A stretch of 64,000 nt of DNA, from positions 1-64,000 of the forward strand of contig JAVLUZ010000719.1 of assembly GCA_036768485.1 (NCBI GenBank), written 5' to 3'. Position 1 is the first letter of the stretch, and every line of letters begins with the position of its first letter. The translations under genes and the position numbers were made by a program. Source of the DNA: Mermis nigrescens. Lineage: Eukaryota > Nematoda > Enoplea > Mermithida > Mermithidae. Positions 4,318 to 52,967 of the stretch are shown here, one piece after another. The notes beneath the pieces are model-generated. The model was not told where the DNA came from, ran no database searches, and saw only the letters and a program-made list of their open reading frames with translations.

Positions 4318-4430
4318 GATCGACCAGGGCGACTTTTTCGGCGGGCGCGGCGGTACTGGGGCTGAAGAAAAATCCCCGGCCCCGGCGGGCTGGGGGCGGG
4401 GCTGGCCGGGGTCAGACAAGGAAAATATTA
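4318..4430. repeat. GC-rich CCCCGGCC repeat next to GTGATCGACC
   Basis: A sharply GC-rich stretch built from CCCCGGCCCCGGCGGG and GGCCGGGG blocks, next to GTGATCGACC. The same GATCGACC word lies next to the similar stretch at 11100-11205 in inverse orientation. Probably the arms of a foldback MITE. Confidence 0.5.
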
Positions 4431-4959
4431 TTGCATGACACATACTTGGGATGGGCATAGGAAAGAAATAATGAGCGACTGCTCCATTCAGTAGTAAATG
4501 GCAAGCGCAAAGTTAGGTGCGCCTTTTAATATCAAGTTTATTACTATTTATGTTACAAGAAACAAATTTAGTCCAGTGTTTCATTGTCTGAATCATCAAT
4601 AGAGTCTATGTCTCTGCTATTAGCACACTCTATATCATTTGAATCTTCGCTACTGCTACCGCTGCTGTAGCGATTGGATGCAATAGGTATTGGATGTAAT
4701 AAATGAGGCATCACACATTCCCATAAGGGGGACGGGCATTACCCCCCCCCCAGGGTCCAAGACACAAGTCACTTTCAGACGATTTTCGGTGAAAACCTTT
4801 TGAATTTTTGAACTTAATTATTTAGTATGGCAAAAGTGTACCTAACCATTAGAATTTCACGAAGTGATACATTATTTTAGAATGTGAGCTAGAGTAAATG
4901 GATAAACTATCACTATAAAACATGCATGTAATCGCTTAAAATTTTATGAGGGTAAATCA
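4431..4959. other. Unassigned non-coding DNA
   Basis: No gene or clear repeat recognised. An acidic codon-like run near 4570-4680 has no supporting splice sites, so I did not call an exon. Confidence 0.4.
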
Positions 4960-6684: not shown

Positions 6685-9424
6685 TTAGGAGCTCTTTTTT
6701 GAACAAACGAATTTTGGAGAAGAGACTATTTGATCAGGTAAGGAGTTCCAGATTTTTCGGTATCTTTGCGAAAAATCGTTGAGGTGAGCATTGGAACGGA
6801 CAACTGGTAACGTAAGTTTACGACTGTTAACTGATCGGGTAGTGCCTTGACTAAAAATGAAGAATTCATTAGCATCAATACAAGATAAACCATTAATAAT
6901 TTGATACATGAGACATAGACATATGTGAAGACGACGAAGTTCTAAAGAAGGCAGGTTTAGAAGCTTTAGGCGTTCAAGATAGGATAGATTGCTATTAAAA
7001 CCAAAAAGACGTTTAGTAAATTTACGCTGAACATTTTCAAGACGATTTATATCATTTGCATAATATGGATTCCATACAGAAACAGCACACTCAAGCATAG
7101 GTCTTACATAAGTAGTATAGGCCCTAACTAAAATATCTTTATCACGAGAAAGAAAAGCTTTGTGTATTAGAAAACAACGAGAAACAGCTTTTTTAATTAT
7201 GTGATTTAAATGTTCCTTACAATTGAGATTGTGGGAAATATAAACACCCAGATCACGAACGGAGCTAATATCATTTGGAATATTTATATTATTCAAAGAA
7301 TAAAGCTTTTTTGGATTATTTTTACCAAGACGTAAAACTGCACATTTTTCTGAAGCTATAGGAAGTTGCCAATTTATAGACCAAATATAAATATTGTCCA
7401 AATCTTTTTGTATTAAATGATTATCAGAAGATGGACCAAAGATTTTGACATCATCTGCAAAGAGGTAAATTTTACTGTATTTAATCAAGTTACATAGGTC
7501 ATTAACATAAATTAAGAATAAAGTAGGACTAATACAACTACCTCGGGGGACACCACTGCCAACAGGCATGAAGTCAGAAAAAACTCCGTTAATACAAACA
7601 CGTTGAAATCGACCATGTAAAAAGGATTTAAGCCAATTAAAAAGTAGACCTTTTATTCCATATTTAGAGAGCTTATATAAAAGCTTAGAAAAGGGAATTT
7701 TATCAAAAGCTTTAGAAAAGTCGATGTAAGCAACATCAACAGGAGTTCTATTACTCAAAGATACCGTCCAACTGTGTTTACATTTAAGTAGTTGTAATTC
7801 ACAAGACTTTGATTTTAGAAAACCAAACTGAAAAGGAGATAAGAGTCTGTTTGTAGTGAGAAAATCGACAATTTTTGAATTTATCAAATTTTACATGATT
7901 TTACTTGATGAGCAGCAAATAGAAATCGGCCTGTAATTTCTGACTAAAGCTGCGTCACCTTTTTTAAAGACTGGGGTTACATTTGCCAATTTCCATAAAT
8001 TGGGGATAGTGCTAGTCAAAAATGAAACATTAAAGATACTAGTTAAAGGCTCAGCAAGATAATTTGAAAGTTTTTTCAAGAAAAAATGACAGAGTCCATC
8101 GGGACCAATAGCAAAAGAACCTTTTATTTGATTTAAAACCAGTTGCACGTTCCAAGCGTCAAAATGAATGGTTTGCAATGCAAAACCAGTCATCGAATCT
8201 AAAAAAGGAACATGATTATTGTCAACAGAAAAACAGAAGAAAAGTAGTTATTAAACAAATTTACCTTTTCTAAAGGATCAGAGACGATTTTGTGGTCATG
8301 AAAAAGAGGTGGAAAAGAGCGATGATTATTCAACCGATTATTGACAAATTTATAAAATGATTTCAAACTTTTGTCAGAAAGAAGATTAATTTCTTCAGAA
8401 GCAGAGAAATTTTTAATTTCAAAATCCGATTTTTTACAAAAAGATTTATATTTGATTTTTGTATCGGTGGAGTGATAAAGTTTATGTTTCTTCCAAAGCA
8501 TACGTTTTTTAGTTAACATTTTTTTAATCAGTTTGGGATATTTACGTTTCATGGGCTTGGGGTGAGTTAATGGGACAAATACATAAATTAAAGAGTGAAG
8601 TACTCCAACGAACAAATTATACATATTATTTACATTAGAACAGGTATCAAAAAGATCAGGCCAAGAAATCTGAGACAGTGATAGACCTAAAGCATTAAAA
8701 TCAGCTTTACGAAAGTTAAAAAAAGATGATCTAGGATTTTGGACTGGCATCAAAAGACAGTCAAATATAATTGAATTATGGTCACTATTAGAAAAAGGAA
8801 TATCAACTTTTACGTTAGAAATTTGATCAGATGCAAAGAGAAGATCTAGTATATTATTATCATGAGTATTTTCTGTTATTCATTGATGTAAACCAGTGCC
8901 CGAAAGTGTGTCGAAAAATAGGGTATTAAGATTATCAGTGGGAACCGAACTTATCCACCAATTGATTTTTGGCAAATTAAAATCTCCTAAGATTACAAAA
9001 GGGAAAGGAACAGAACAAGCCCATTCGATACATCTACATAAAATTTCAGCATAAGCTAGATCAAAATCAGGGGGTCGGTAAACCAAAATAAATCTGATCT
9101 TTCTATCAGAATCAAAAATATCATTTATTAGAATTTCGGGAGCTTTAAAAGCGGGTGGCGGATTTATTTGAATAGCATTAAAAGAAGTTTTAAGAAATAA
9201 AGCTACACCCCACCTCGTTTACAGTTTCGATCACAGCGAAAAATACGATAATTTTTGCCAGGGCACAATAATCCATCGGAAATATCAATATGGAACCATG
9301 TTTCAGAAAAAAACAGAGCATCAAAACTTTCTTCATTCAGCAAAAAATGTAAGTTGCTAAGTTTGTTCAAAAGACTTCGAGCATTAGCATAAAAACATTG
9401 AAATTTTAAATAATCTTGGGGCAC
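6685..9424 (-). pseudogene. LINE ORF2: AP endonuclease + reverse transcriptase, frame-broken
   Basis: Would nick target DNA and reverse transcribe the element RNA. Endonuclease pieces: NARSLLNKL and SETWF in 9424-9203, then YRPP and GDFNLPKINW in 9086-8880. A linker piece follows at 8753-8199. RT: GPDGL and FKKGD in 8193-7891, then a 400-codon stretch 7887-6685 with DFSKAFDKI (motif A), GVPRGSCISP (motif B) and FADD at residues 143-146 of that stretch (motif C). 8193-7891 and 7887-6685 share one frame and are parted only by a TAA, i.e. a single nonsense change. Other joins are frameshifts near 9200, 8870 and 8200. Dead copy. Confidence 0.85.
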
Positions 9425-16888: not shown

Positions 16889-18401
16889 CAGGGTGTTTCA
16901 TAATGATCTGCTCCCCTAAACAAGCATTTTTATCCAAGCTACAGAAAATTTAAACATACCATATTGTAGAGAATTTAATTTTGCGTTTATTGGTATTTGT
17001 TTCAGGGAAAAAAATTAGTGATTCTTTTTTATAGCATAAAAACGATAAGCAATGCGAAAATTTACAATTGCAAGCCTTGACTCACAATAAAAATCAGTTT
17101 CACCGCCATCCGAATCTCGAACTTGTTTTAATCGTTCAGGCATGGAACACAGGAGGCTCTGGAACAAATTCTCATTAAATTCCAGGCTAGACAAGACAAT
17201 GTTCAAGTTTCTCAACAATGTCTCTTGCGAATAACGCCCTTGACCACTTTCTTGGTGCATCAGATCCTCCCTCTGTCCTTAACTATTTCGCCCAAATTTT
17301 CCGTCGCATTCAGGTCGGGACTGTTACCGGGCCACAAATCATTGCCCCAAAATTCAATGTTCATGTTTCTTAGATAATTTTGCGTTAAATTAGCTTTTAT
17401 GCATGGCGCTCTGTCATGAACAAATGTGGTTTCACCAACAACAAGAACATTATCAGGATCGTTCAAAAATGGTAAAACCTTCTGACTTAGCACAACATGA
17501 CGGAAATATTTACCATTCCACGATTGTCCATGATCCTTAATTACCCAAAGCAAGCGTTTAGCAGTAAACATTAGGAAAATACCAATGCAAGATGGGTTTT
17601 TGACAACACCGCGAAAATGTTCCTTGTCATCGATTTCACCTGGCTCAAGTGCCCAAACGCGGTCATTCTGATGGTTGGGTTTCCGAATTGAATAAATAAA
17701 GAACTCATCACTGAAGGCAAAGTGCTTAAAATCGGATTCATCGTAATCTCTTGCATTTTCAGCAAGAAGCAAGCGATTTTCGCGATTCAGGTTCGTTTTT
17801 AGGGGTTTGGCGATTACGTGAAATGGTTTAAAACCCTGTTGTCGCAAAAAAACTAAAAACTTTGCAGTGACTACGAGTTTTTCCTCTTTCGGCCAAAATT
17901 TGATTCGACAGTCCGCGGCAACTTTTCCGTTGCAATCCAGTACTTGCACGAACAATGTTCTTTGATTCTTGAGACAAAATTTCCGGCCTGCCGCATTTCG
18001 ACAAGTCCGCAAAACAGTCGGAGGGTTTTTTTGCCAGTTGTCTTGAACCCATCTTTCACTCCTTTTCAACCAATTGGCCACCCAATTTTTGGTAATGAAT
18101 TCTGCTCCAGCTTCCTTTGCCTCAAAAAAAGCAGTTGCCCGAATCCTATCCACTAAGCGAGCTTGCTCCGAATCAAAACTCATTTTGAACAAATGGGAAT
18201 AACAAGATAATCCTAAAATAATCAATTTTACAGATGGGATTACTTTACATTGATACAACTTATGACTCATTGTTCAATAAATAATCACAATAATACCACT
18301 AAACGTAGAATTAAATTTTCTACAAGATGGTATGTTTGAATTTGCTGTAGCTTGTTTATAAGGGTCTTTTCCAGGGGAACAGATCATAATAAAACATCCT
18401 G
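16889..18401 (-). mobile_element. Tc1/mariner transposon (DD37E type), complete ends
   Basis: Terminal inverted repeats of about 95 bp: CAGGGTGTTTCATAATGATC at 16889 and, inverted at the right end, CAGGATGTTTTATTATGATC. Element 1513 bp, flanked on both sides by TA (16887-16888, 18402-18403), the target duplication of this superfamily. The right flank is a TA-rich run, so the exact TA is slightly ambiguous. Carries one transposase on the - strand and lies antisense in gene A intron 1. Confidence 0.9.
17015..18270 (-). pseudogene. Tc1/mariner transposase with one frameshift
   Basis: DDE transposase that cuts and pastes its element. The frame opens at 18270; ATG 18183 (MSFDSEQ) is the likelier start because the helix-turn-helix (TKNWVANWLKRSERWVQDNW) follows closely. 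Catalytic residues: D in FSDEFF, D in FVHDRAPC, E in DLNATEN, with 37 residues between the second D and the E, so DD37E rather than the DD34E of classical Tc1. NDRVWA and WPGNSPDLN are family hallmarks. The frame breaks near 17260, where the end of the first part runs one base out of phase with the C-terminal part to 17015. Inactive unless repaired by a close relative. Confidence 0.88.
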
Positions 18402-39459: not shown

Positions 39460-39560
39460 CCCCGGTGGGAGAAACATTTCTCCCATCAAAATTTACCCCG
39501 GAGGGAGAAACGTTTCTCCCAGCAAAATTTTCCCCGGTGGGAGAAACGTTTCTCCGAGTG
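39460..39560. repeat. Three 36-bp repeats, each with palindrome GGGAGAAACGTTTCTCCC
   Basis: The 18-bp palindrome lies at 39467-39484 (one base different), 39503-39520 (perfect) and 39539-39556 (last base different): an exact 36-bp period. Spacers are ATCAAAATTTACCCCGGA and close variants. Confidence 0.9.
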
Positions 39561-40012
39561 TGATTAAAGCTTATCATGGTTTCGCCGTTTCTCCCGTTTC
39601 TCCCAGTCTCCGGGTGTGGTTACCTAAACTTATCATGGTTTCGCCGTTTCTCCCGTTTCTCACAGTCTCCGGGTGTGGTTACCTATACTTATCATGGTTT
39701 CGCCGTTTTTCCCGTTTCTCCAGGCTCCGGGTGTGGTTACCTATGCTTATAATGGTTTGGCCGTTTCTCCCGTTTCTCCCAGGCTCGTGTGGTTACCTAT
39801 ACTTATCATGGTTTCGCCGTTTCTCCCGTTTCTACCAGTCTCCGGGTGTGGTTACCTATACTTATCATGGTTTCGCCGTTTCTCCCAGGCTCGTGTGGTT
39901 ACCTATGCTTATCACGGTTTCGCCGTTTCTCCCGTTTCTCCCAGGCTCCGGGTGTTGTTACTTATGATTGTCATGGTCCAGGCTCCGTGTGTGGTTACCT
40001 ATGCTTATCATG
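39561..40012. repeat. 59-bp minisatellite, about eight units
   Basis: Unit landmarks: GGTTACCTATACTTATCATG, GTTTCGCCGTTTCTCCC, GTTTCTCCCAG, CTCCGGGTGT. Units vary from about 48 to 60 bp by losing one GTTTCTCCC block. That word is half of the neighbouring palindrome. Confidence 0.9.
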
Positions 40013-40560: not shown

Positions 40561-40586
40561 GCATTCCCCAAAATTTTGGTGCTGCC

Positions 40587-40866
40587 TGTAAGACCATGGC
40601 CAGTCTTACACAAGGGATCTTAATTCTCACCTACCGTACGTACTCTGCATAACAGCTTGAATGCCGGAAACTAACCATTTTACTATGGTGCATGGAGTAT
40701 ATATAACCCCATCTAAGTATCCGCCTACTTGATTAGTGCCTACCTACTTATACATATTACGAACCCACCACCTAATAACAGGAATATAAACACGTATTAT
40801 GATAAGAGAAACGACATTAACACATAAACCCATTTTATCATGTCTTTATATCCTATCTTTGTTACA
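40587..40866 (-). repeat. 3' LTR
   Basis: 280 bp, TGTAAGACCATGG to TTTGTTACA on the + strand. Contains GTATATATAACCCC, a possible core-promoter TATA on the + strand; on the sense (-) strand no clear TATA was identified. Confidence 0.93.
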
Positions 40867-40882
40867 TTCCTCCCCTTTTTAA
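40867..40882 (-). promoter_or_regulatory. Polypurine tract of the LTR element
   Basis: Directly inside the 3' LTR, the sense strand reads AAAAAGGGGAGGAA, the normal place and composition for the plus-strand primer. Confidence 0.75.
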
Positions 40883-41409
40883 ATTGATTGTTCGGCTGAA
40901 GAAAGGTCTTAACTGAATTTGAAGCATTGCTTACTCTTGTCGCAAAGTTTGAAGTGTAGAAGCCAAAAATTTCCGGGTGGCGACTAAGATGCATAAGATG
41001 GAAGACGGGTCATTATACAGCATTTAGAATACTGGTTAAATATAGGCTGATGCGTATTAATTAAAAATTTGATGATAAAACGTCCTTTTTAACCCGGGCT
41101 CTGGTCCACTCCAGCTCCCAGGGTGTCATGTGACTCCTGGCCATTTTGAGGCTCTGGTCCACTCCAATTCCCTAAATAGCACAGGAAATTCACAATAACA
41201 ATTGGCGCGGCATACATTGCCCCTGCCAATAGGACGTTGGCGATGGCGTGGCAAAATGCGCCTCTTCTATCGCCAATAATACCAATAATAACAATTTATA
41301 TTGCATCGCGGCATAGTGCGCCTCTGATGCATTGGCAACATAACATATTACAAGATTAAATACTTAAACGTAGGTATAGGTACGCATTATGGATAAACAA
41401 AGCCTAAAT
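40883..41409 (-). other. Non-coding 3' region of the LTR element
   Basis: Where an env gene would usually lie there is only about 530 bp without a coding frame. GGCTCTGGTCCACTCCA-type word twice (41097 and 41150), and AATAGGACGTTGGCGATGGC-like blocks near 41230 and 41280. Confidence 0.6.
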
Positions 41410-44400
41410 TTAATACTCGATGCTACCGTCGCTCATGGTGTCTGCATCATTTAATGCATCGCGTTTTTCGCCCCGAAATGGACGAATTTGATTCAAATGG
41501 ATGACCCGAATCCGTCGACGTCCCGCCAATTCGCGAATAGTGGCATTTGGTGGGCGTACACGACGAATTTCGTATGGACCGAGCCAGCGAGAATGGAATT
41601 TTGACGTGGCTCGGGCGTTCCGTAAAAGCACTAATTGGCCCGGATGATAACGAGGCGTCGGTTTTTCCGTGCGATTCCGACGATCATATTGCTCCTTCTG
41701 CTGTCGTTGGGCTTTCTGGGCAGCCTCGATGGCAAATCGGCGTGCCAAACGCAAATGACGATGGATTTCTCGGACGGAGGGAGCCTCTGGTTCGTCCGGC
41801 GTATCAGCCACTAAGGCTTGCTCCATCGGTAGCTTCGCCTGGCGCCCATAAACGAGGTAGTAGGGCGTGTATCCCGTGCTGGCGTGTCGGGTGGTGTTGT
41901 AGGCGAAGGTGACAGCCGGCAGGAACCGATCCCACTCGTTCTGCTCGTCCTGAACGGTTGTGGTCAGCATGGTTTGCAGCGTACGGTTGAAACGCTCCAC
42001 CAATCCGTTCGTCTGGGGGCAATAGGCCGTCGAGGTGATGTGCCGCACCTGGTATAGCCGGCAAACCTCCTGAAAAACGGCAGCAACAAAGCCCGCGCCT
42101 CGATCCGATTGGACAACCTTGGGCGCCCCAAAACGCAAAACGATGCGCTCCAGGAAGTGCTCCGCAATGGTTGTGGCTCGGATGTCTACGGTAGCCACGG
42201 TCTCGGCCCATTTTGTCATCCGATCTATGAAAACTAAAATATTAGTTTTTCCATGGGCCGTTGGCAGTGGTCCCATGGTGTCCATAACCCAATGCTGCAT
42301 AGCGGCAGCTGCTGGAATAGAGTGAAGGGGTTGGACGGGTAAAAAGTAAGTGATGGGTTGACGTTTTTGGCAGGGCAAACACTCCCTACAATATTTAAAT
42401 ATATCAGAACGCAACCCCGGCCAAAAAAAACGTTCTTTAGCTTTCTCATAGGTACGCTGAAAAGCTAAATGTCCGCTGGTGGCGTCATCATGCAACGCCT
42501 GGAGCAGCGTGGGAATTAACCTTCGGGGGACGGCCACCAATGGTTCGGCGTTCGGATCCTTTTGATATTTAAGGACGCCGTCGTTTCCGAGTAGATAATT
42601 CTCGGCGGCGTCCCACTGCTCCGCGTTCATGTGTGACGGCACCCGTCGAGCCTGTAATAAACGAAAAATGGCACCTAAGAACACATCACGTCTCTGCATA
42701 CTTATTAGGTCACGCGGCATCTCCACCGTGCACACCTGCTTTGCATTTATGGCTGCTTTTGTAATAATGGGAGCAGCAGGCAAGCGTGAAAGAGCGTCGG
42801 CGTTTGCATTTTCACGACCCTTGCGATAAATGATTTCGTAGTCGTACTCCTGCAATGATAAGACCCAACGAACGAGTCTAGATGGTGCCGAATCATGAAT
42901 TTTTAAGAGACGGATGGGAGCATGATCTGTAATGAGCGTGAAATGGTGTCCATATAAGTACGAGCGAAACTGTTTAATGGCATAAGTAATAGCCAGTGCC
43001 TCTTTTTCAACAGTTGAATAATTACGCTCAGCTTTAGTTAACGTGCGTGAGACAAATGCTACCGGACATTCCTGCCCCTCTATCATTTGGGCTAGGACTC
43101 CCCCGATCCCAGTTCCGCTAGCATCTGTCTGAACCAAAAATGGCTGCGAAAAATCTGGAAAAGCTAGGGTAGTAGCAGAAACTAAATCATTTTTGATCGT
43201 TTGAAAACTCTGCATGCATTCTTCCGACCAAACAAAATGCACATTTTTACGCAACAATTTATTAAGTGCATGTGTCTTATCTGCGAAATTTTTAATGAAA
43301 CGTCTATAGTAATTAGCTAAACCTAGGAAGCTGCGTACCTCTGTGACAGTCTGAGGCACTGACATGTGGAATAATCCGTCTATTTTGGCCGGATTAACAT
43401 GCAAACCATTACAATCGATAATATGACCTAGGTAGCTTACTTCATTCAAAGCAAATTCACATTTTTGCAATTTAAGAGTTAAACCAGCTCGGCCAAGCCG
43501 ATCGAAAACTTGTTTAAGCTGTTTAATGTGAGTTTCGGGGTCAGAACTACAAATTAAAATGTCATCCAGATAAACGAAACAATTTCGCCATTTTAAATCT
43601 CTCAGAACTTTTTCCATAGTTCTCTGAAAAGTGGCTGGGCCGTTGGACAAGCCAAATGGAAGTACGTTAAATTCAAAGAGACCCAAAAATGAGTTAAAAG
43701 CTGTTTTATTTTTGTCTTCTTCAATTAACTCGATTTGATGATAACCTTGTTCTAAATCTAAGGTTGTGAAAATCGTAGATCCTTTAAGTTGACTAAAAAT
43801 GTCCTCAATTAACGGCAATGGATACGAATCTTTTACAGTACATTCGTTTAACTTTCTATAATCGACACAAAAACGTTTGGATCCGTCCTTTTTATCAACT
43901 AGGACGATAGGAGCAGCCCAGGGGCTCTGAGATGGCCTAATAATGCCATTTTCCAACATTTTATTTACATGCTCTTCAACAATTTGCCGTTTAGCATACG
44001 GTATTCGATAAGGTGGCTGAGAAATCGGCCTGTGATTGGCCGTATCGATACCATGCTGTACAATGGACGTCCGTCCCAAGGATCTATTAACTCCGAAAAT
44101 AGATGAATTTTTTTCCAAAAATTCGGAAAATTGTTTTCGAACGCTTGGGTCCGGGACATGAATCAATTTTTCTTGAATCAATTCGCGGAAATTTTTGAGC
44201 TTTTCCTGACATTGATTTTCCCGACACTCTCCCACTTCCTCCCCTGTTAAAACGTGATTAACAGAGCAAACTCTAGCAATACGCATGTTTTTATATAAGC
44301 GAATAGGTTGCTTAGAGTAATTGATAATAGGAAGGGAAGAAAAATGGTTTTCGTTTAAATTTAAGCGTAAATTTGGTACATAAATTGCGTCGTACGGAGT

Positions 44401-45831
44401 AAAAGAATTAATATCAACCCAAGTCGAATTAAAAGTTTCTAAATCAACATTGATTGGTAAAGAATAAATAGAAACTGGAGGTACTAAAATTGTGTCTTTC
44501 ACTGAGACAAAAGCGATTCGTTCTTTTTGGTTTGTTGAGAAAATTAATGGAATAGGTTTATTTTGACCAAAACGAGCACATTTTTGTTTATAGTCAAAAG
44601 TGAAACGTTGTGAACTGCCACATAATTTATTTATTACGTCACAGCCTATTATTATAGAATAAGGACTGTTTTGCATTATGACAAATTTTATAGATAAGTT
44701 TTGAGTTCCAATCTGTACGTCTAAAATAATTTCACCAGGTGATTGTATAGCATGACCAGTAATAGAAGTGGCTGTAACCGCTTGACGCGGTTGCAAGGGT
44801 TGGTCATCTTTACACTCTAAATACGTAATATTATCTAAAATTGACACTGTAGACCCTGTGTCAACAAGGGCTAGTAGCCGACGTCCGTTGGGCATACGGA
44901 CATGTATATGAGGCCGGGACATAGCTATCCCGGTTTGTGCAATGGCCAAAATCGGCGTACGATTTCGGCGCCGATAATGTGTTTCGGCGGATATTTCTGG
45001 CTGCTGGGCGCGATAACGAACTGTCAGGGGCTGTCGGCTCAAGGGGTGTGAATGTCGAGGGCAGCACAATGATGTCATTTGCGTGCACAAACGTGGGCAC
45101 AGCATAGCGAACCAGCGGCAAGCAGATGAGCAAACGCCGCAACCCCAATGACACCAGATACAGCACCAGCCGTATCTCAGCCCTAGATAGCCTAAACCAA
45201 GCACAATTATAATGACAAAACACCAAAATATTGCATTAGTTAAGGTCTGGCCGATTCCACTTGTAAGTGAAGATATAGCATGACCAGTTTGCTGAAATAA
45301 ACCACTTACTGCGGTCTGGAGGTGTGAAACCGCCAGACCATTAACGTCTTTTACGCCATCCCCAATATCGCGCAAAACTTGGCGAAATTGTGCCGGATCT
45401 ATGTTTAGGGTGGACGTAAAATTCACGAGTTGTTGCATTTGCTGTCGCAACCGCCAGGTTTCGAGAGCAGTGAGCTCGAGTGACGTCTGAAAAGGCGGTT
45501 GGCGCCCTAGATCCCGAAAAACCATCGGGGCGTCAAAAATGATGGTGGTGGGTGAATCTAGGAGTATCGAAGCGTCCAACCGTCGTTGTAATAGTGGTTT
45601 GACGTCAACTACGCCGTGGGAACTTATCCATCGGTGCTGGCTGGCGTCATAATGGACGCCAGAAGGTGCTTGAAAGCAGGGCACCTGCGGAGCAGCTGAA
45701 ACTAAGTCTTGCGTTCCTGGCAAAATAAAATACAGAGTTTCGTTAATAACAAGCGGCAAGAGCGCATAGCACTCCTTGCCGACACGATAATTCCAAAAAT
45801 AAGGTCGGGCTGAACCTGAACGCATGGCCAA
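41410..45831 (-). CDS. pol: Gypsy Pol polyprotein fused to a C-terminal envelope-like domain, 1473 aa, open
   Basis: One uninterrupted frame. Residues 1 to about 290: envelope-like part (see 44960-46144) with a membrane span at about 200-222 and a Cys-rich tail. Protease: DTGS at 324-327. Reverse transcriptase about 640-830: DLEQGYHQIEL, LPFGLSNGPATFQ, YLDD at 754-757. RNase H: catalytic-type D903 in TDASGTGIGG. Integrase: His/Cys zinc binding near H1121 to C1151/C1154 (CLPC), catalytic D1184, D1243, E1279, the last pair separated by 35 residues (DD35E). The tail IRVIHLNQIRPF is typical of Gypsy integrase ends. All catalytic motifs are present. It lies one base back (-1) from gag, like an ordinary gag-pol pair, but I see no standard slippery heptamer. 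Start is nominal, since it would be entered from gag. Confidence 0.92.
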   Translation of the reverse strand: MAMRSGSARPYFWNYRVGKECYALLPLVINETLYFILPGTQDLVSAAPQVPCFQAPSGVHYDASQHRWISSHGVVDVKPLLQRRLDASILLDSPTTIIFDAPMVFRDLGRQPPFQTSLELTALETWRLRQQMQQLVNFTSTLNIDPAQFRQVLRDIGDGVKDVNGLAVSHLQTAVSGLFQQTGHAISSLTSGIGQTLTNAIFWCFVIIIVLGLGYLGLRYGWCCIWCHWGCGVCSSACRWFAMLCPRLCTQMTSLCCPRHSHPLSRQPLTVRYRAQQPEISAETHYRRRNRTPILAIAQTGIAMSRPHIHVRMPNGRRLLALVDTGSTVSILDNITYLECKDDQPLQPRQAVTATSITGHAIQSPGEIILDVQIGTQNLSIKFVIMQNSPYSIIIGCDVINKLCGSSQRFTFDYKQKCARFGQNKPIPLIFSTNQKERIAFVSVKDTILVPPVSIYSLPINVDLETFNSTWVDINSFTPYDAIYVPNLRLNLNENHFSSLPIINYSKQPIRLYKNMRIARVCSVNHVLTGEEVGECRENQCQEKLKNFRELIQEKLIHVPDPSVRKQFSEFLEKNSSIFGVNRSLGRTSIVQHGIDTANHRPISQPPYRIPYAKRQIVEEHVNKMLENGIIRPSQSPWAAPIVLVDKKDGSKRFCVDYRKLNECTVKDSYPLPLIEDIFSQLKGSTIFTTLDLEQGYHQIELIEEDKNKTAFNSFLGLFEFNVLPFGLSNGPATFQRTMEKVLRDLKWRNCFVYLDDILICSSDPETHIKQLKQVFDRLGRAGLTLKLQKCEFALNEVSYLGHIIDCNGLHVNPAKIDGLFHMSVPQTVTEVRSFLGLANYYRRFIKNFADKTHALNKLLRKNVHFVWSEECMQSFQTIKNDLVSATTLAFPDFSQPFLVQTDASGTGIGGVLAQMIEGQECPVAFVSRTLTKAERNYSTVEKEALAITYAIKQFRSYLYGHHFTLITDHAPIRLLKIHDSAPSRLVRWVLSLQEYDYEIIYRKGRENANADALSRLPAAPIITKAAINAKQVCTVEMPRDLISMQRRDVFLGAIFRLLQARRVPSHMNAEQWDAAENYLLGNDGVLKYQKDPNAEPLVAVPRRLIPTLLQALHDDATSGHLAFQRTYEKAKERFFWPGLRSDIFKYCRECLPCQKRQPITYFLPVQPLHSIPAAAAMQHWVMDTMGPLPTAHGKTNILVFIDRMTKWAETVATVDIRATTIAEHFLERIVLRFGAPKVVQSDRGAGFVAAVFQEVCRLYQVRHITSTAYCPQTNGLVERFNRTLQTMLTTTVQDEQNEWDRFLPAVTFAYNTTRHASTGYTPYYLVYGRQAKLPMEQALVADTPDEPEAPSVREIHRHLRLARRFAIEAAQKAQRQQKEQYDRRNRTEKPTPRYHPGQLVLLRNARATSKFHSRWLGPYEIRRVRPPNATIRELAGRRRIRVIHLNQIRPFRGEKRDALNDADTMSDGSIEY

Positions 45832-46144
45832 ATGAGGAGGGTTTCCCCTGCGACTCGGGCTGCTACATCATTACGCTGAGTCCATAACCTTGCAGCTAAA
45901 GTAGCATCTAAACGCAATAACTGACGCACAGTTTGAAGTTGCGCATCAGCTATACGACAAATATGCGTCCAGATTTGAGAAAAACGGGTGGTTTCCCAGC
46001 GATTAAAAGAAGCTTCTAAATACTGTAATCGAGAATTTATTTCCGCAGATTCTCCGGATTTTATAAGATTAGCTGGTGCGGGGATTTCCGAAAAATTTTG
46101 AGAAATATTTGATTCTGGTTGTGCCAAATGAAAAGTTTCATTAT
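44960..46144 (-). pseudogene. Envelope-like (chuvirus-type glycoprotein) segment between gag and protease
   Basis: Upstream part, in the gag frame (about 46144-45790): NSRLQYLEAS, RFSQIWTHICRIADAQLQ, ARVAGETLLIWPC. Downstream part, in the pol frame (about 45790-44960): GKECYALLPLVI, YFILPG, VPCFQAPSG, HRWISSHGVV, then a helical stretch with an N-glycosylation motif (NFTS), a hydrophobic anchor (FWCFVIIIVLGLGYLGL) and many Cys. This order of blocks is what I know from glycoproteins of chuviruses and of env-bearing animal retroelements (class III fusion type). The two parts are one base out of frame near 45790, and the first half of such a protein is missing, so it is partial and broken as a membrane protein. 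It is in frame with protease downstream. Confidence 0.62.
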
Positions 46145-46663
46145 CATAAGCTTGCATAGCTAATTGCTGTAGCTCAAGGGCATACCTGATAACGGGTTTC
46201 CGGGGCCCCTGTCTACGATTATGCAACTGTAAGGCTTTTAATTCCGTGTTTTCGATGGGTACAAAACGACGACGGAGTCGCTCGATCAAGGCATTAAAGT
46301 CTAGAGCGAGCCGCTCCTCGTCAGGGATGGATTCGTAAGCCACTTCAGCGAAATCTCTTAAATAGGTTGGGAGTATTACCCTTTGTTTTTGGTTATCCCA
46401 ACCATTGGCCACAGCAACGCGAATAAAACGATCGGTCCACCGGTCAAAATTTTCGTCTGACCGCCCGTGAAAATACTCACCTATGCTAGCAGGTCCACCT
46501 GTGCTAGCAGAAACTACAGGGGCGCCGGTGGCGCCACCTGCTGAGCGTCTTCCATTTGACGCTGCTGGCGTCTTACCGTTACTTCTAAGCGCTCTAATTG
46601 TTCTCTCATTCGTTCCATGGTATTAGTTGGCTGTAAGCTCGTAGAGACCTTACGACTGCTCAT
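46145..46663 (-). pseudogene. gag: Truncated gag with one frameshift
   Basis: ATG 46663 opens a 49-codon Gln/Arg-rich coiled-coil start (MERMREQLERLEV) that meets TAG at 46514. One base back the frame continues as EYFHGRSDENFDRW, a typical capsid opening, then WDNQKQRVILPTYL and IERLRRRFVP, as in Gypsy capsids. Capsid similarity ends near 46145 where the envelope-like part begins in the same frame. No CCHC nucleocapsid knuckle is present. Confidence 0.75.
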
Positions 46664-49317
46664 CAGATTTTGAATTTTAATCTAAATTCTAAATATATAT
46701 TTTGCTCAAGAAAAATATTTATAATCATCTAATTGATCGCAAATTCGTGGACATTTCATGTTGCAAAGTGCATTTTTAGCTATCCAAAAAAAACAGCATG
46801 AGAAAAATATTAAAAATCGCATGCTTGTAGATATCTTGTGGCTTCTCATCGAATTATATACTGAAATATAGCGCCAAAAGAATTTTTATAATCATACAAT
46901 TTCAAGCTTGCTTTTGAAGCGAAATTCGGCAAGGTATATTGAAACAAATTTTCAAAATTTAGGAACGCACCGTTAAATGTAATGCATTTCGGCTGATATG
47001 TCGAATAAAGGCGAACATACACTATATCGAGCGAACCTCTGAAATTTTACAAACAATTAATTATTGTACCGGTTGACATGCACTTGTTATATCTTTATAC
47101 GTTCACTCGAAAACTAGTTATGGTCACCGCCTGAGACCGATATGCTGCTGCTTAAATACGCACTTACCATTAGAAGCGTTGCCCTTGCGCTTATTACTAG
47201 GTTACATATTCTGTTTTACGCTGCTTCCGTCGGCATCACATTTATAAGGCGAGCAACACAATAAAACAACTTTTATGAACCGCGCGGTTTAACGCCTCGA
47301 GTGACCACCGACCATGCCATATTGCAATTTATGTAGGTCATCTCGGGAAAGCCGACAACTGCGCCACTACAGCGTACACACGTGTGTCAACACAAAAAAA
47401 TCATGCCCCCAAACAGTTTCAATGTAACCTCACGCCGATTCACTAATTAATAAACAATGGGGCATACGGTAGCGGCCAGCTCGCTACACAATTGACCGGT
47501 CCACTACGTCTACGTCACCTATGACGGACTATAAACGGCTGGCGGGCAATAGTATACACAAAACACAGTATCACAGGTAAGGCGCGTGCATATAGTGTGC
47601 ATGATTCGACATGTGCGTTTCGGGGATCGCTCTTTTAATCGCGCAAATTAGGTTGCAAAGTTTCGAATAGAAATTATGCAATTACGAAAGGACAAAATTA
47701 CGTATTTTGATCATCCTTTTTGGTTCGACCGTTTGACATTATGAAGTGAAAATGCGTTCAGTGACCAGAAAGTGTCCGAGAATTGAGTTTCGGGTTGAAC
47801 GTGTCAGTCCGTGAATTTTCGGTGAACTCTTTAGATCACATTAAAAGTAACCTTAGGTAATTTTCAAGGTAAACAAAATCGGTAAGTTTAGGTCGCATTT
47901 AAAAGTGATAAGGTGAAATGACCGAAAACGGTACAATTTCTCAGGTACTTCGGAAAATAGAATGAAAAATATCGTTCAAAATTGAAATGTTGTCCTTGAT
48001 AATATGAAATTGTTCAACCAAATTTTACGAATAACAAATTGGATCTCGCTCTCTCAAAATCTCGCTAACTTTGCAGAAGAATGCGCGCCTGGCTCGGAGA
48101 AGGTCGCGTAGATAGGTATAAACAAGTAACTTTGCATGCGTGATGAAGTGAACGGCCTGATAGGGCACGAGCGGTCAAATATCCGAGGATTTCAAAATTG
48201 CATAATGTTTAGAATAATATAAGAAACTTTGCATATTTACTTTTCAAGGTTATTGTGAATATTTGCAATGAATTCACGAAAACTATCCGAAAAGTGCTTC
48301 GACAATCGGTACAGCATAAAGCACAACATGCACATATGTACGAACTCAAATGAGCAGGTTATGACTGGGGTAAAGTGGGAATTGTAATCGAGCTAACACA
48401 ATTAACATGTTTGCAATAGATTTTGCGAAAGTATTAATTTTCGTATTAGGTAAAATTATTCGAACTATTTGTTCTAGCTCAGTTAATGCAATTAGCATGC
48501 ACAATAAAGTAACTGGCATTTGATTTTTAAAATTATTACTTTTATTTACATTGAGTTCGCAAAAACAATTTAAAGGGGTTCGAAAATTAGTGACAGCAAA
48601 GGATACGAGCATGCACAGCAGTAAAATCGAGTGAACAGCTCACAACCAGATATAGTCTTTGGTGTAAGTTAGCACACTTAATACGTGTTGCATTTTCAAC
48701 GAAAAATCTGATTTTCGTATTGTAAAAATTATTTGAAATCCGTTCAGTTATTAGCAAACATATGCAAATGCGAGTTCAGTAAAATAGTCACGATTAGATT
48801 ATGCAGAGATTTCGAAATAAGCTAGTTATTTACACATTTCGTACCTTTTTCAGCCAAAACTTCATAGTTTTTGTCTTTTCCCGTGAATTACTGAGAAATA
48901 TTTCGCATCAACGAGGAGTAAAAACAATATTGCAAGGTTCAAATCAGATATCGCCAGCTTATTGCTCATCGCAGCCGTGTGAAACAACGTAGTGGAAATT
49001 ACGCACATAATTATGTTAAAAAAGAATCAGAAATATTTGATAGCACATATTTTTATCGGACCACCCACAAAAACAGGCATCGCCTACATCAGGCACATGG
49101 GTTCGATGTGATGATCGAGCTAATGGAATTAAGAACGAATTTTCCCCATCACACATACAGGCGGATTTGGAAAATGATATAAACATCCATCGAGCAGCAG
49201 GAAAAGGGATCAACACAAAAGGTCGAGCTAATCGGCGTAAACTGGCGCTACACGTGTTGGTCGCCGGGTAGTTCCGGTGTACGGTAGGTGGCGAGAGGTC
49301 TTGAGAAGTGATCAGTT
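46664..49317 (-). other. Long leader of the LTR element, no gene recognised
   Basis: About 2.65 kb between the primer site and gag without a convincing coding frame. Leaders in this group are usually a few hundred bases. It may hold a decayed gene, internal promoter or packaging signal; nothing specific is visible. Confidence 0.55.
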
Positions 49318-49334
49318 TCCCAGATTGCCCCCCA
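49318..49334 (-). promoter_or_regulatory. Probable primer binding site
   Basis: Three bases inside the 5' LTR the sense strand reads TGGGGGGCAATCTGGGA, beginning TGG as expected for pairing with a tRNA 3' CCA. I cannot assign the tRNA. Confidence 0.5.
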
Positions 49335-49337
49335 ATA

Positions 49338-49616
49338 TGTAAGACCATGGTCAATCTTACACAAGGGATCTTAATTCATACCTACCGTACGTACTCTGCA
49401 TAAAGCTAGAATGCCGGAAACTGACCATTTTACTATGGTGCATGGAGTATATATAACCCCATCTAAGTATCCGCCTACTTGATTAGTGCCTACCTACTTA
49501 TACATATTACCAACCCACCACCTAATAACAGGAATATAAACACGTATTATGATAAGAGAAACGACATTAACACATAAACCCATTTTATCATGTCTTTATA
49601 TCCTATCTTTGTTACA
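49338..49616 (-). repeat. 5' LTR
   Basis: 279 bp, same ends as the 3' LTR; differences near positions 13-16, 40-42, 65-72, 84 and 170 of the repeat. Confidence 0.93.
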
Positions 49617-49621
49617 CTGCC

Positions 49622-50224: not shown

Positions 50225-52967
50225 GAGCATTTAGTTTGCGTTTAAAAAATTTCTAAGCTAGGTGAATTTACAACATCAACTGGAAGTGAATTCCACAGAT
50301 TCACATATCTGTGACTGAAATCATACTTGAGAATATCTGAACGAGCTACTGGAACAGTCAGTTTAAGGTTATTGACAGAGCGAGTATAGTTGCGATTGAA
50401 TGCGAAAAACTCGTCACAGAGAATGTGTGATTTTCCATTAATAATCTGATAATAAAAGGATAAAGCAAAACGAATACGGCGTATTTTCGAGACGTTCTAA
50501 CGACAGACTTTTTAAACGATCATTATATGACAAACCACTGTTAAAACCAAAAATACAACGGGTAAACTTGCGCTGAACTCGCTCGATACGATCAATATCT
50601 CTGAATACGATAAGGACTCCAAACGGTACAGCAGTACTCTAAAAGCGGACGAACATATACAACAAAAGCGCGAGACAAAATTTCATGATCACGAGAGAAG
50701 AATAACTTCAGTATCAGACTGGATCGCTGAGAAGCTTTTTTAATCACTCCATGATAGTGCTGCTGAAATTTCAAATTTTGAGACATTAGAACACCTAAAT
50801 CGCGGACACAGTCAGAATCAGAAGGTAAAAGTTGATTTCCAATAAAATATTGATGTTTAGGATTATTATAACCCATGTACAAAACTGAGCATTTATCAAT
50901 AGATATCTGAAGCTGCCATTCACGCGACCATGTATAAAGCTTATTAAAGGTCGTTTTGAAGTATAGTTTTAGAAGAGGACAAATTATACATTTTAACATC
51001 GTCAGCAAATAACCGAATACGACTACTCATATTATCACATAAATCATTAATGTAAATCAGAAAAAGGGTTGGCCCTATCACGCTCCCTTGCGGGACGCCG
51101 CTAGTTACATTAAAGCTATCTGAAAAAGAACTATTAACAACAACGCACTGAGATCGAGAGGATAAAAAAGATTTAAGCCAGTTGAAAAGAAAACCATTTA
51201 GACCATATGCAGAAAGTTTATGAAGTAATTTTGTGTGCGATAAAGAATCGAAAGATTTTTAAAGTCGATAAAAATTACATCTACAGTAGATTTTCTATCA
51301 ATAAATTTTGCCCATTCGTTTTTACACTGTAGCAATTGCATTTCACATGATCGACCTTTTAAAAATCCAAATTGGAGAGGAGAAAGTAAATTATTTATAT
51401 TTAAGTAATCCAGAATCTTTTTTATTAACAATTTTTTCCATAATTTTACAAGGAGAGCAACGCAACGAAATCGGACGATAATTTTCTACACAAGCAGAAT
51501 CACCCTTATTTTTTGAAAACTGGAATAACGTTTGCTTGATACCACAATTTTGGAATTGAACCTGATCGAAAAGAAGTTTCAAAGATAGAAGCAAGAGGAG
51601 GAGAAAGAAAATAACCTAGTTTTTTAATAAAAAATGAGCATAGGCCATCAGGGCCACATGCAGTACTTGGTTTAGATTCGCGAATAGCTCTGTAAACGGT
51701 GTCTACATAGAAATTCATTTCTGCTAACGAAGAAAAAGTACGAGCCTGAAAAACAGGAAGATTTTGATCATCAACAGTGAAAACAGAGGCAAAATATGAG
51801 TTAAAATGATTAGCTTTTACATGATCGTCATCTAATTCAATACCATTAGATAAAGTCAGGGGAAATGAACTTTTCCTGATTTTCAAACGAGAATTAACAA
51901 AATTGTAAAAGTTACGGATATCGCCTGATTTCAAAACTTCTAATTCTTCTTTAGCGTAAAAATTTTTGGTTTCTCTTTTTATAGATTTGCAGAAACTATA
52001 ATAGATAGTTCGATTTGTTCGAGTTTTGAACTTTTTGTAATTTTTCCATAATTTAAGTTTTTTTTTAAAATATAACTTACGGATGTGTTTAGGAAGAACT
52101 TTCTTAAAATTTCTATGTACTTTTTCAGGTATTACATCAGAACTAATAGTTTGAAGAACTGAAACAAAAACATTATACATATCATCTGCCGAAGTACACT
52201 GATTAAATAAATCGGGCCAAGAAACAGTGGCTAATCGCATAGAAATTAACTCGTAATTGGCTTTTCGAAAATTTAAACAAGAGGGCATGTGATTTGTCTC
52301 TTCGTACCCTTGAATTTCGAAAGCAATAGAATTATGACTACTATCAGAAAAAGGGAGGTGATATCTTCACGTTAATGGCTTGATTAAGTGAAAAAAGCAA
52401 ATCTAATATATTATTATCATGAGTTGGACTACGGATTAGTTGCTCCAAACCAGTTGTACAGAAGGTGTCATAAAATAAAGTATTGATGGGATCAGAAGGA
52501 AAGGTGTTGGAGACCCAATTAATTTTAGGAAGATTAAAATCACCAACAATTAATAAAGGATAAGGTACATTAGAAGCCCATTCAATAGAATTACAAAGAC
52601 TTTCAGCATACATAATATCATAAGTAGGAGGACGATAAGCTAGAATAAATCTAGTTTTGAAATCAGTATTGCATAAATCAAAAATTAAAATTTCACAGGC
52701 AGGAAAATTGATAGGAATTTTGATGTGTTTAATATGTAGATTATTATTAGCAAAAACTATAAGTCCACCCCCACGTTTATTTAACCGATCACATCGAATA
52801 ATTTGGTAATTATTTGAACTGCAAAGTAGACTATCTGGAATTTCAGGATAAAGCCAAGATTCACAACAAAGTATTATTTCAAACTGTTTGCTATTTAGTA
52901 ACAGTTTTAAATCACCTAGCTTATTTAACAAACTTCTTGAATTGAAGTACAGAACTTTTAAACGCAA
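50225..52967 (-). pseudogene. LINE ORF2: AP endonuclease + reverse transcriptase, frame-broken
   Basis: Endonuclease 52967-52344: NSRSLLNKL, CESWLYPEIPDS, AYRPPTYD, VGDFNLPKINW, THDNNILDLLFS; the frame is lost just before the expected SDH motif. Linker plus first RT motifs 52288-51506 (ACGPDGLCSFF, NVIPVFKK). RT pieces 51594-51391 and 51431-51198 (LQFGFLKGRSCE, FIDF), then breaks around the active site near 51040, and 51008-50592 (WQLQISIDKCSVLYMG, DLGVLMSQNLK, VRPLLEY). Tail to about 50225 (FSHRYVNLWNSLP). At least five frame breaks. Confidence 0.85.

What the first reader, a model, noticed from the sequence alone, without database searches (positions are those of the whole stretch)
44960..46663. 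Envelope-like glycoprotein segment lodged between gag and protease of a Gypsy element
Seen: capsid-like sequence runs directly, in frame, into blocks typical of chuvirus-type glycoproteins, which run through a membrane anchor and Cys-rich tail directly, in frame, into protease (DTGS) and a fully open RT/RNase H/integrase. Known: env genes in such elements lie after integrase. Here that place holds only about 530 non-coding bp. Either a new architecture or a recombination product in which env replaced the gag C-terminus and nucleocapsid; the open 1473-codon frame and similar LTRs mean it happened recently or was kept.
Basis: partly seen in the sequence, partly recalled or inferred. Interest (0 to 1): 0.88.

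Follow-up and report, generated by a model that had tools for sequence, protein, structure and literature searches.

The report
Envelope protein inside a gag-pol polyprotein
A large, diverse group of virus-like jumping genes in a nematode genome carries a chuvirus-type membrane-fusion protein between its particle-building and enzyme parts, in one reading frame where this could be read, whereas known relatives keep an envelope gene at the end; the copy in this window is a damaged, recombined member.

Summary
The glycoprotein (GP) segment is real, but the window copy is a damaged chimera of a family in which GP normally lies between nucleocapsid and protease. Window copy: LTRs 97.5% alike, 5-bp duplication; gag joined to the C-terminal half of GP at a 12-nt shared sequence (46157-46146); leader and gag 98-99% identical to short gag-only elements, GP 99% to copies with GP. 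Elsewhere in the genome (524 Mb, probably the nematode Mermis nigrescens) GP matches at least 195 places. In 38 of 38 places examined protease follows GP; 89 of 107 RT matches have a listed GP upstream, 0 downstream. In two lineages read in pieces, gag-NC-GP-TM-PR-RT is one open frame with a hydrophobic segment opening GP. GP matches Pfam Monjiviricetes_fusion in 5 of 5 lineages and, weakly, herpes gB; dN/dS is about 0.07 in the one measurable pair. ICTV places Metaviridae env downstream of integrase; the ten literature searches I made listed no gag-env-pol order, but one key paper was not held. Most likely a membrane-threaded Gag-Env-Pol polyprotein; expression is untested.

The parts
49338..49616 (-). 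5' LTR (279 nt, TG..CA)
   Evidence: 7 mismatches of 279 to the 3' LTR
40587..40866 (-). 3' LTR (280 nt)
49617..49621 (.). target-site duplication GGCAG, 5' side
40582..40586 (.). target-site duplication GGCAG, 3' side
46651..49337 (-). 2.7-kb leader with no ORF of 120 codons or more; its last ~1.5 kb is about 98-100% identical to the leader of four gag-only elements
46158..46622 (-). gag: capsid N-terminal part (frame A); its first ~45 codons are out of frame relative to relatives
46146..46157 (-). 12-nt sequence shared by gag and GP parents: recombination junction; CA C-terminus, NC and GP N-half are missing here
44938..46145 (-). C-terminal half of a Monjiviricetes (chuvirus-type) fusion glycoprotein, with TM and tail; crosses from frame A to frame B near 45800
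45178..45231 (-). transmembrane segment of the glycoprotein
   Evidence: hydrophobic segment at the end of GP in 5 of 5 relatives
44938..45177 (-). Cys-rich tail and linker, running in frame into protease
44623..44919 (-). aspartic protease (DTGS), RVP E=1.9e-6
43417..43896 (-). reverse transcriptase (RVT_1)
42844..43230 (-). RNase H (RT_RNaseH / RT_RNaseH_2)
41866..42531 (-). integrase (H2C2 zinc domain and rve core)
41410..45867 (-). open frame B: late GP - TM - tail - PR - RT - RH - IN
40867..41409 (-). 543-bp 3' untranslated region, no env there; purine-rich tract at its end

Best explanation
The window copy is a defective member of a large lineage of Ty3/Gypsy-type LTR elements whose coding region runs Gag(CA-NC) - internal hydrophobic signal - chuvirus-type class III fusion glycoprotein - TM - tail - PR - RT - RH - IN. 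Shown: the order, one open frame from capsid to RT in two lineages, the homology, the constraint on GP. Inferred: the full-length RNA is translated as one polyprotein that threads the membrane as flavivirus polyproteins do: Gag stays in the cytosol, the internal signal inserts GP into the ER lumen, the TM brings the chain back so that tail and Pol are cytosolic, signal peptidase frees the GP N-terminus and the element protease cuts around Gag and Pol. Gag, Env and enzymes would then be made at one site in a fixed ratio, giving enveloped, potentially infectious particles. Inferred for this copy: while copying a mixed pair of RNAs, reverse transcriptase jumped from a full-length RNA to a gag-only RNA at the 12-nt shared sequence, losing the C-terminus of Gag and half of GP; with frame breaks in gag and GP it cannot encode complete Gag or Env.
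For: GP between gag and PR: 38 of 38 distinct places (window included) have PR downstream on the same strand, 35 of 38 also RT within the fetched flank; integrase homology was never found upstream of GP in the ~1.5 kb held. 89 of 107 RT rows (86 of 104 places) have a listed GP upstream within 6.5 kb, 0 downstream, 0 on the opposite strand. Read in pieces: C620, ATG-CA-NC-signal-GP-TM-PR-RT without a stop, GP and RT printed in one 2287-aa frame; C11, CA-NC-signal-GP-TM-PR-PR-RT in one frame; C192, CA-NC-signal-GP-TM-tail up to just before RT in one frame, RT in the same printed 2230-aa frame; C389, GP-TM-PR-RT-RH; C574, NC then a stop-free 607-residue GP. GP identity: PF24664 in 5 of 5, best 6.2e-18, BDV_G in 5 of 5; profile of five GPs hits herpes gB chains, best E=2e-4; 15 invariant cysteines at 27-57% identity to C620. 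Constraint: pN/pS 0.15 (0.11-0.21), dN/dS 0.07 for L064 vs L067. Hydrophobic segments: at the end of GP in 5 of 5, at its start in 4 of 5 (the fifth peaks at 1.38); six Gag and Pol pieces peak at or below 1.39. Chimera: leader and gag 98-99% to four gag-only elements, GP 99% to GP-bearing copies, junction at 12 nt.
Against: No RNA or protein data: polyprotein translation, membrane threading and particles are untested. The N-terminal half of GP matches no Pfam family in three lineages (P0006, P0008, P0134: 0 families); the GP identity rests on the C-terminal half. The PR of C192 was recognised by its DSGA motif only (P0139: 0 families), and that of C389 is below its cut-off in the piece used. 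N-glycosylation sequons are not clearly enriched (28 against about 20 in shuffles over five GPs; 5 against 4.9 in C620); C620's GP has a further hydrophobic window in the middle. Many copies are broken; L013 and L016 have frame disruptions in gag. C11 shows no gag ATG in the piece read; I saw the integrase end of no copy but the window. Open-frame lengths printed by the genome search are upper bounds, because one long value turned out to be N. Of 107 RT rows, 18 have no listed GP. The dN/dS rests on one lineage pair with dS about 1.5; other pairs are saturated. In the window copy PF24664 is below its cut-off.
Confidence: 0.8

Rival explanations
1. Same architecture, but GP is not translated as part of one polyprotein: alternative splicing either removes the GP stretch as an intron (giving Gag-Pol) or makes a subgenomic GP(-Pol) mRNA.
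For: Cer1, a Ty3/Gypsy element of C. elegans, has no stop between gag and pol and makes its extra protein CERV from a spliced mRNA (passages of PMC10309623). Nothing in my data excludes splicing.
Against: GP is continuously open and in frame with NC on one side and the PR region on the other in C620, C11 and C192, which a spliced-out stretch would not need; splice sites were not tested.
Confidence: 0.3
2. A one-off recombination product: env lodged by accident in this locus, with no wider meaning.
For: The window copy really is a chimera, joined at 12 shared nt, and is frame-broken.
Against: GP precedes PR in 38 of 38 places and in lineages with GP identity down to 27%.
Confidence: 0.03
3. An endogenous chuvirus fragment that happened to insert between gag and pol of one ancestral element and is carried as a passenger.
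For: Jingchuvirales glycoprotein fragments are common in arthropod genomes and often flank LTR elements (PMC10084718, results and discussion sections).
Against: GP is kept in frame, with conserved cysteines and dN/dS about 0.07; pN/pS 0.15 for GP against 0.17 for RT in the same pair. A passenger would decay.
Confidence: 0.05
4. The segment is a gag-derived or host protein and not an envelope.
For: The window piece alone matches PF24664 only weakly, and the N-terminal half of relatives matches no Pfam family.
Against: Relatives match PF24664 in 5 of 5 and herpes gB by profile; hydrophobic segments flank it.
Confidence: 0.02

Closest known systems
Anakin (BEL/Pao element with chuvirus glycoprotein, mosquitoes; PMC7642597, passages and one section seen)
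   Same: LTR retroelement that captured a chuvirus-type glycoprotein and multiplied it.
   Different: BEL/Pao, mosquito hosts. I saw no statement of Anakin's gene order; the paper says that env of the related Roo, Tas and Cer-7 lies downstream of the polyprotein.
Errantiviruses / env-bearing Metaviridae (ICTV profile PMC7879559, passages seen)
   Same: Ty3/Gypsy-type pol order, LTRs, an envelope protein.
   Different: Env is encoded downstream of integrase in the ICTV profile; here it sits before protease, in the same frame where this could be read.
Jingchuvirales glycoprotein EVEs of arthropods and nematodes (PMC10084718, abstract, results, discussion)
   Same: Same glycoprotein family; LTR-Gypsy fragments nearby in Hymenoptera and other insects; one nematode event with two EVEs.
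   Different: That study found no clear glycoprotein capture by Gypsy; its nematode EVEs are flanked by simple repeats and low-complexity regions. Here GP lies inside the element, many times over.
'Mono-Chu' glycoprotein EVEs of ants (PMC6540820, passages seen)
   Same: Similar glycoproteins, found in all 19 ant genomes studied, mostly in ant-only clades.
   Different: The passages seen do not tie them to a retroelement; whether any is such an element was not tested.
Cer1 of C. elegans (PMC10309623, passages seen)
   Same: Nematode Ty3/Gypsy without a stop between gag and pol and with an extra protein.
   Different: Its extra ORF lies after pol, does not resemble Env, and is made by splicing.
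Flavivirus polyprotein (recalled)
   Same: Cytosolic capsid, internal signal, lumenal envelope glycoprotein, TM, cytosolic enzymes in one chain: what this would work like.
   Different: Unrelated; membership not claimed.

Membership tests
Ty3/Gypsy (Metaviridae) | LTRs with TG..CA ends and 4-6 bp target duplication | tested here: met
   (window copy)
Ty3/Gypsy (Metaviridae) | pol order PR-RT-RH-IN | tested here: met
   (window copy)
Ty3/Gypsy (Metaviridae) | Gag with capsid and CCHC nucleocapsid | tested here: met
   met in relatives C620, C11, C192; NC absent from the window copy
Ty3/Gypsy (Metaviridae) | RT phylogeny within Metaviridae | not tested
   no reference tree was built; assignment rests on domain order and Pfam hits
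Errantivirus-type env-bearing Metaviridae | Env encoded downstream of integrase | tested here: not met
   543 bp non-coding after pol in the window; listed GP upstream of RT in 89 of 107 rows, downstream in 0 of 107
Chuvirus-type (Monjiviricetes) fusion glycoprotein | match to Pfam PF24664 above the curated score | tested here: met
   5 of 5 relatives match (C620 50.8 bits against 27); 68 of 68 genome matches over the cut-off; window copy below it
Class III fusion protein | gB/VSV-G-like fold | tested here: inconclusive
   profile hit to herpes gB, best E=2e-4; single-sequence AlphaFold of the window piece was poor (pLDDT 48)
Anakin | BEL/Pao pol | not tested
   no RT comparison to Anakin or BEL/Pao was made
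Single Gag-Env-Pol polyprotein | one translated product cleaved into Gag, GP and Pol | not testable with these tools
   no RNA or protein data

The most novel reading that the evidence does not exclude
A long-lived, diverse lineage of enveloped Ty3/Gypsy-type elements with the genome plan LTR-gag-env-pol-LTR in one reading frame: envelope made from the same chain as Gag and Pol by threading the membrane, as flaviviruses do. As far as I found, it would be the first reverse-transcribing element with env between gag and pol and with this style of envelope expression, perhaps dating to one capture of a chuvirus glycoprotein before the lineages split (C620 and C11: GP 27% identical; L064 and C11: RT 47%; no tree was built).
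Probability: 0.6. Interest if true: 0.9.

Novelty: new variant of a known kind. Interest (0 to 1): 0.82.

Why it matters
The ICTV profile states that Metaviridae env lies downstream of integrase. An env inside gag-pol would need another way to express an envelope (membrane-threaded polyprotein or splicing), a fixed Gag:Env ratio, and protease cleavage beside a membrane. It would also show that the chuvirus-type glycoprotein captured by BEL/Pao elements in mosquitoes was captured by Gypsy-type elements too, here in a nematode, and it offers many copies for comparison, including a recombinant that suggests co-packaging with gag-only elements.

Tried and rejected
Rejected: one-off artefact, passenger EVE, gag-derived segment (see rivals). 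Programmed frameshifting inside GP was considered for the frame change near 45800 and dropped: 14 of the 16 closest copies (L010-L025) carry early and late GP in one frame there; L015 and L024 share the window's change. Led nowhere: GP against 5.8 billion predicted proteins, none at E<=0.001; GP in viral contigs, none; Rfam on the window, none; single-sequence AlphaFold of P0001, mean pLDDT 48, no fold search run; insect odorant receptors, none found but no control rang, so not informative. In the single-sequence PDB search the best rows for C620's GP were TRPA1 channels (8 of 19 rows, best E=0.0046) ahead of gB (E=0.15); I judged them chance because the five-GP profile lists no TRPA1 and 36 of its 38 rows are gB. 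The GP/RT distance correlation of 0.99 is inflated: several of its 25 loci are one place fetched twice and only 5 are distinct lineages; I do not rely on it. Rows dropped: I counted 38 distinct places out of 60 loci (L009-L068), leaving out 6 gag-only loci and 16 repeat fetches. Three of the 104 places appear as two rows. The Chary and Hayashi eLife paper on envelope-carrying retrotransposons, cited in PMC13172572, is not held, so I could not check whether it reports this order; this is the main gap in the novelty claim.
Full report
What is in the window. The element lies on the minus strand at 40587-49616. Its LTRs are 279 and 280 nt with 7 mismatches of 279 (97.5%) and a 5-bp duplication GGCAG. 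After a 2.7-kb leader comes gag with a capsid-like domain, then glycoprotein sequence, a TM and Cys-rich tail, protease, RT, RNase H and integrase, then 543 bp of non-coding DNA. Gag's start is also out of frame relative to its relatives. This copy is therefore broken in gag and GP, while pol is open.

Host. The assembly has 523,963,438 bases in 860 contigs. A COX1 copy read with the invertebrate mitochondrial code is closest, among hits that name an organism, to the mermithid nematodes Thaumamermis, Romanomermis, Diximermis and Hexamermis (69-71%); the top-scoring hit (70%) names no organism. The published Mermis nigrescens assembly is 524.2 Mb in 867 scaffolds (PMC10989877, passages). The host is probably that species; this is inference.

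The junction is copy-specific. A DNA search with 44700-46650 splits at query position 494-505. The gag side matches six gag-only places, four of them at 99%; the GP side matches 16 other places at 97-100%. For ten GP-bearing places a gag is listed about 1.5 kb further upstream, at 87-89%. Both parents carry the same 12 nt at the junction. Leader and gag are 98-99% identical to four gag-only elements, GP 99% to GP-bearing copies, and the LTR 89% to the gag-only type. The simplest history is a template switch by reverse transcriptase from a full-length RNA to a gag-only RNA, which would mean that the two were packaged together.

The position of GP is not copy-specific. Of 60 loci fetched around matches, 54 hold GP; they are 38 distinct places, the window included, and in 38 of 38 protease follows GP on the same strand, in 35 of 38 RT too. 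Integrase homology appears only as a ~20-residue C-terminal remnant in five gag-only loci, never upstream of GP in the ~1.5 kb held. A search with the window's RT/RNase H gives 107 rows at 104 places; 89 rows (86 places) have a listed GP upstream on the same strand, none downstream, none opposite; for 18 none is listed. Both lists hold only the best-scored candidates (104 of 3822 and 132 of 1039), so neither the 18 nor the zeros are exhaustive. GP matches cover at least 195 distinct places; 22 of 134 and 23 of 68 matches are printed as lying in open frames of 1500 residues or more, but such values are upper bounds since one long value was N. The stretches on which I rely contain no N.

Anatomy of other copies, read in pieces. 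C620 (L070, L065): ATG, capsid, CCHC knuckle, linker, hydrophobic segment, GP, TM, Cys-rich tail, PR, RT, without a stop; GP and RT lie in the same printed 2287-residue frame. C11 (L069): capsid, knuckle, hydrophobic segment, GP, TM, two aspartic-protease domains in tandem, then RT, in one frame open to the end of the piece, without an evident gag ATG in the piece. C192 (L074): capsid, knuckle, hydrophobic segment, GP, TM, Cys-rich tail and a DSGA protease motif that Pfam did not recognise, open to just before RT; RT is in the same printed 2230-residue frame. C389 (L073): GP, TM, PR, RT, RNase H, with about 365 residues before the GP signal in which no gag domain was recognised. C574 (L016), a close relative of the window copy, has the knuckle and a stop-free 607-residue GP but a frame change and a stop in gag.

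Identity of GP. Five lineages match PF24664 (5 of 5, best 6.2e-18) and Borna virus G (5 of 5); three match herpes gB weakly. A profile of the five hits herpes gB chains in the PDB, best E=2e-4, with 33 gB sequences at or below E=0.013 and 36 gB among 38 rows; with one sequence alone gB is at E=0.15, behind chance-looking TRPA1 rows at 0.005-0.01. The PF24664 matches of the fetched pieces begin at about profile position 280 of 653 or later; the N-terminal half gives no Pfam hit in three lineages. Fifteen cysteines are invariant at 27-57% identity to C620. Hydrophobic segments end GP in 5 of 5 and open it in 4 of 5; in C192 the opening segment is weaker (1.38). Six Gag and Pol pieces peak at or below 1.39; C620's GP has one more hydrophobic window in its middle. 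Sequons: 28 observed against about 20 in shuffles summed over the five.

Constraint. Between lineages L064 and L067 (GP 82% identical) pN/pS is 0.15 (0.11-0.21) and dN/dS about 0.07 with dS 1.49; RT in the same pair gives pN/pS 0.17 with saturated dS. Other lineage pairs give GP pN/pS 0.27-0.33 with saturated dS. In the measurable pair GP has been kept about as strictly as RT.

How it most likely works. Shown: order, frame, homology, constraint. Inferred: a membrane-threaded polyprotein as described above, compared from general knowledge with flaviviruses. Splicing remains possible; Cer1 of C. elegans uses it. No RNA or protein data were available.

What is known. [quoted passage not shown] Dezordi 2023 found no clear capture of Jingchuvirales glycoproteins by Gypsy (PMC10084718, abstract, results and discussion). 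Anakin is the BEL/Pao case (PMC7642597, passages and one section). Bdelloid rotifer elements carry env-like ORFs as ORF3 (PMC5408684, passages). Ants hold many chuvirus-like glycoprotein EVEs, which could be looked at again for this architecture (PMC6540820, passages). Ten searches of the held library listed no paper that I recognised as describing a gag-env-pol order; the term 'gag-env-pol' with 'retrotransposon' gave 0 papers, and of ten papers with 'between gag and pol' I looked into two. I saw listings and passages of most, and a directly relevant eLife paper was not held.

Verdict. The finding is real and larger than reported; the window copy is a poor example of it. I rate it a new variant of a known kind (env-bearing LTR retroelements) with an unusual genome plan.

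Noticed in passing
L031, L033, L034, L035, L037, L038: Short gag-only elements. Five of the six (not L037) carry a ~20-residue remnant of the integrase C-terminus after gag, in frame with it in L031 and L033; L031, L033, L034 and L035 are nearly identical in leader and gag and look like an amplified non-autonomous family.
   Followed up: partly
L069:3863-4174 and 4406-4738 (C11 element): Two aspartic-protease domains in tandem between GP and RT in one open frame (RVP E=1.3e-5 and Asp_protease E=6.7e-9).
   Followed up: partly
L073:2-1096 (C389 element): About 365 residues in frame before the GP signal with no recognised gag domain; gag may lie further upstream or be replaced.
   Followed up: no
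window 39555-39992: Tandem array, mostly 56-59 nt spacing (six copies), just beyond the 3' LTR.
   Followed up: no
window 6685-7887 and 51506-52967 (minus strand): ORFs that look by eye like non-LTR retrotransposon reverse transcriptase and endonuclease fragments; no family search done.
   Followed up: no
window 17260-18270 (minus strand): 336-aa ORF that looks by eye like a mariner/Tc1-type transposase; no family search done.
   Followed up: no
G000:C61:36162539-36163888: COX1 read with AGR=Ser, TGA=Trp inside a 48-Mb contig: a nuclear copy of mitochondrial DNA or a mis-joined piece.
   Followed up: no
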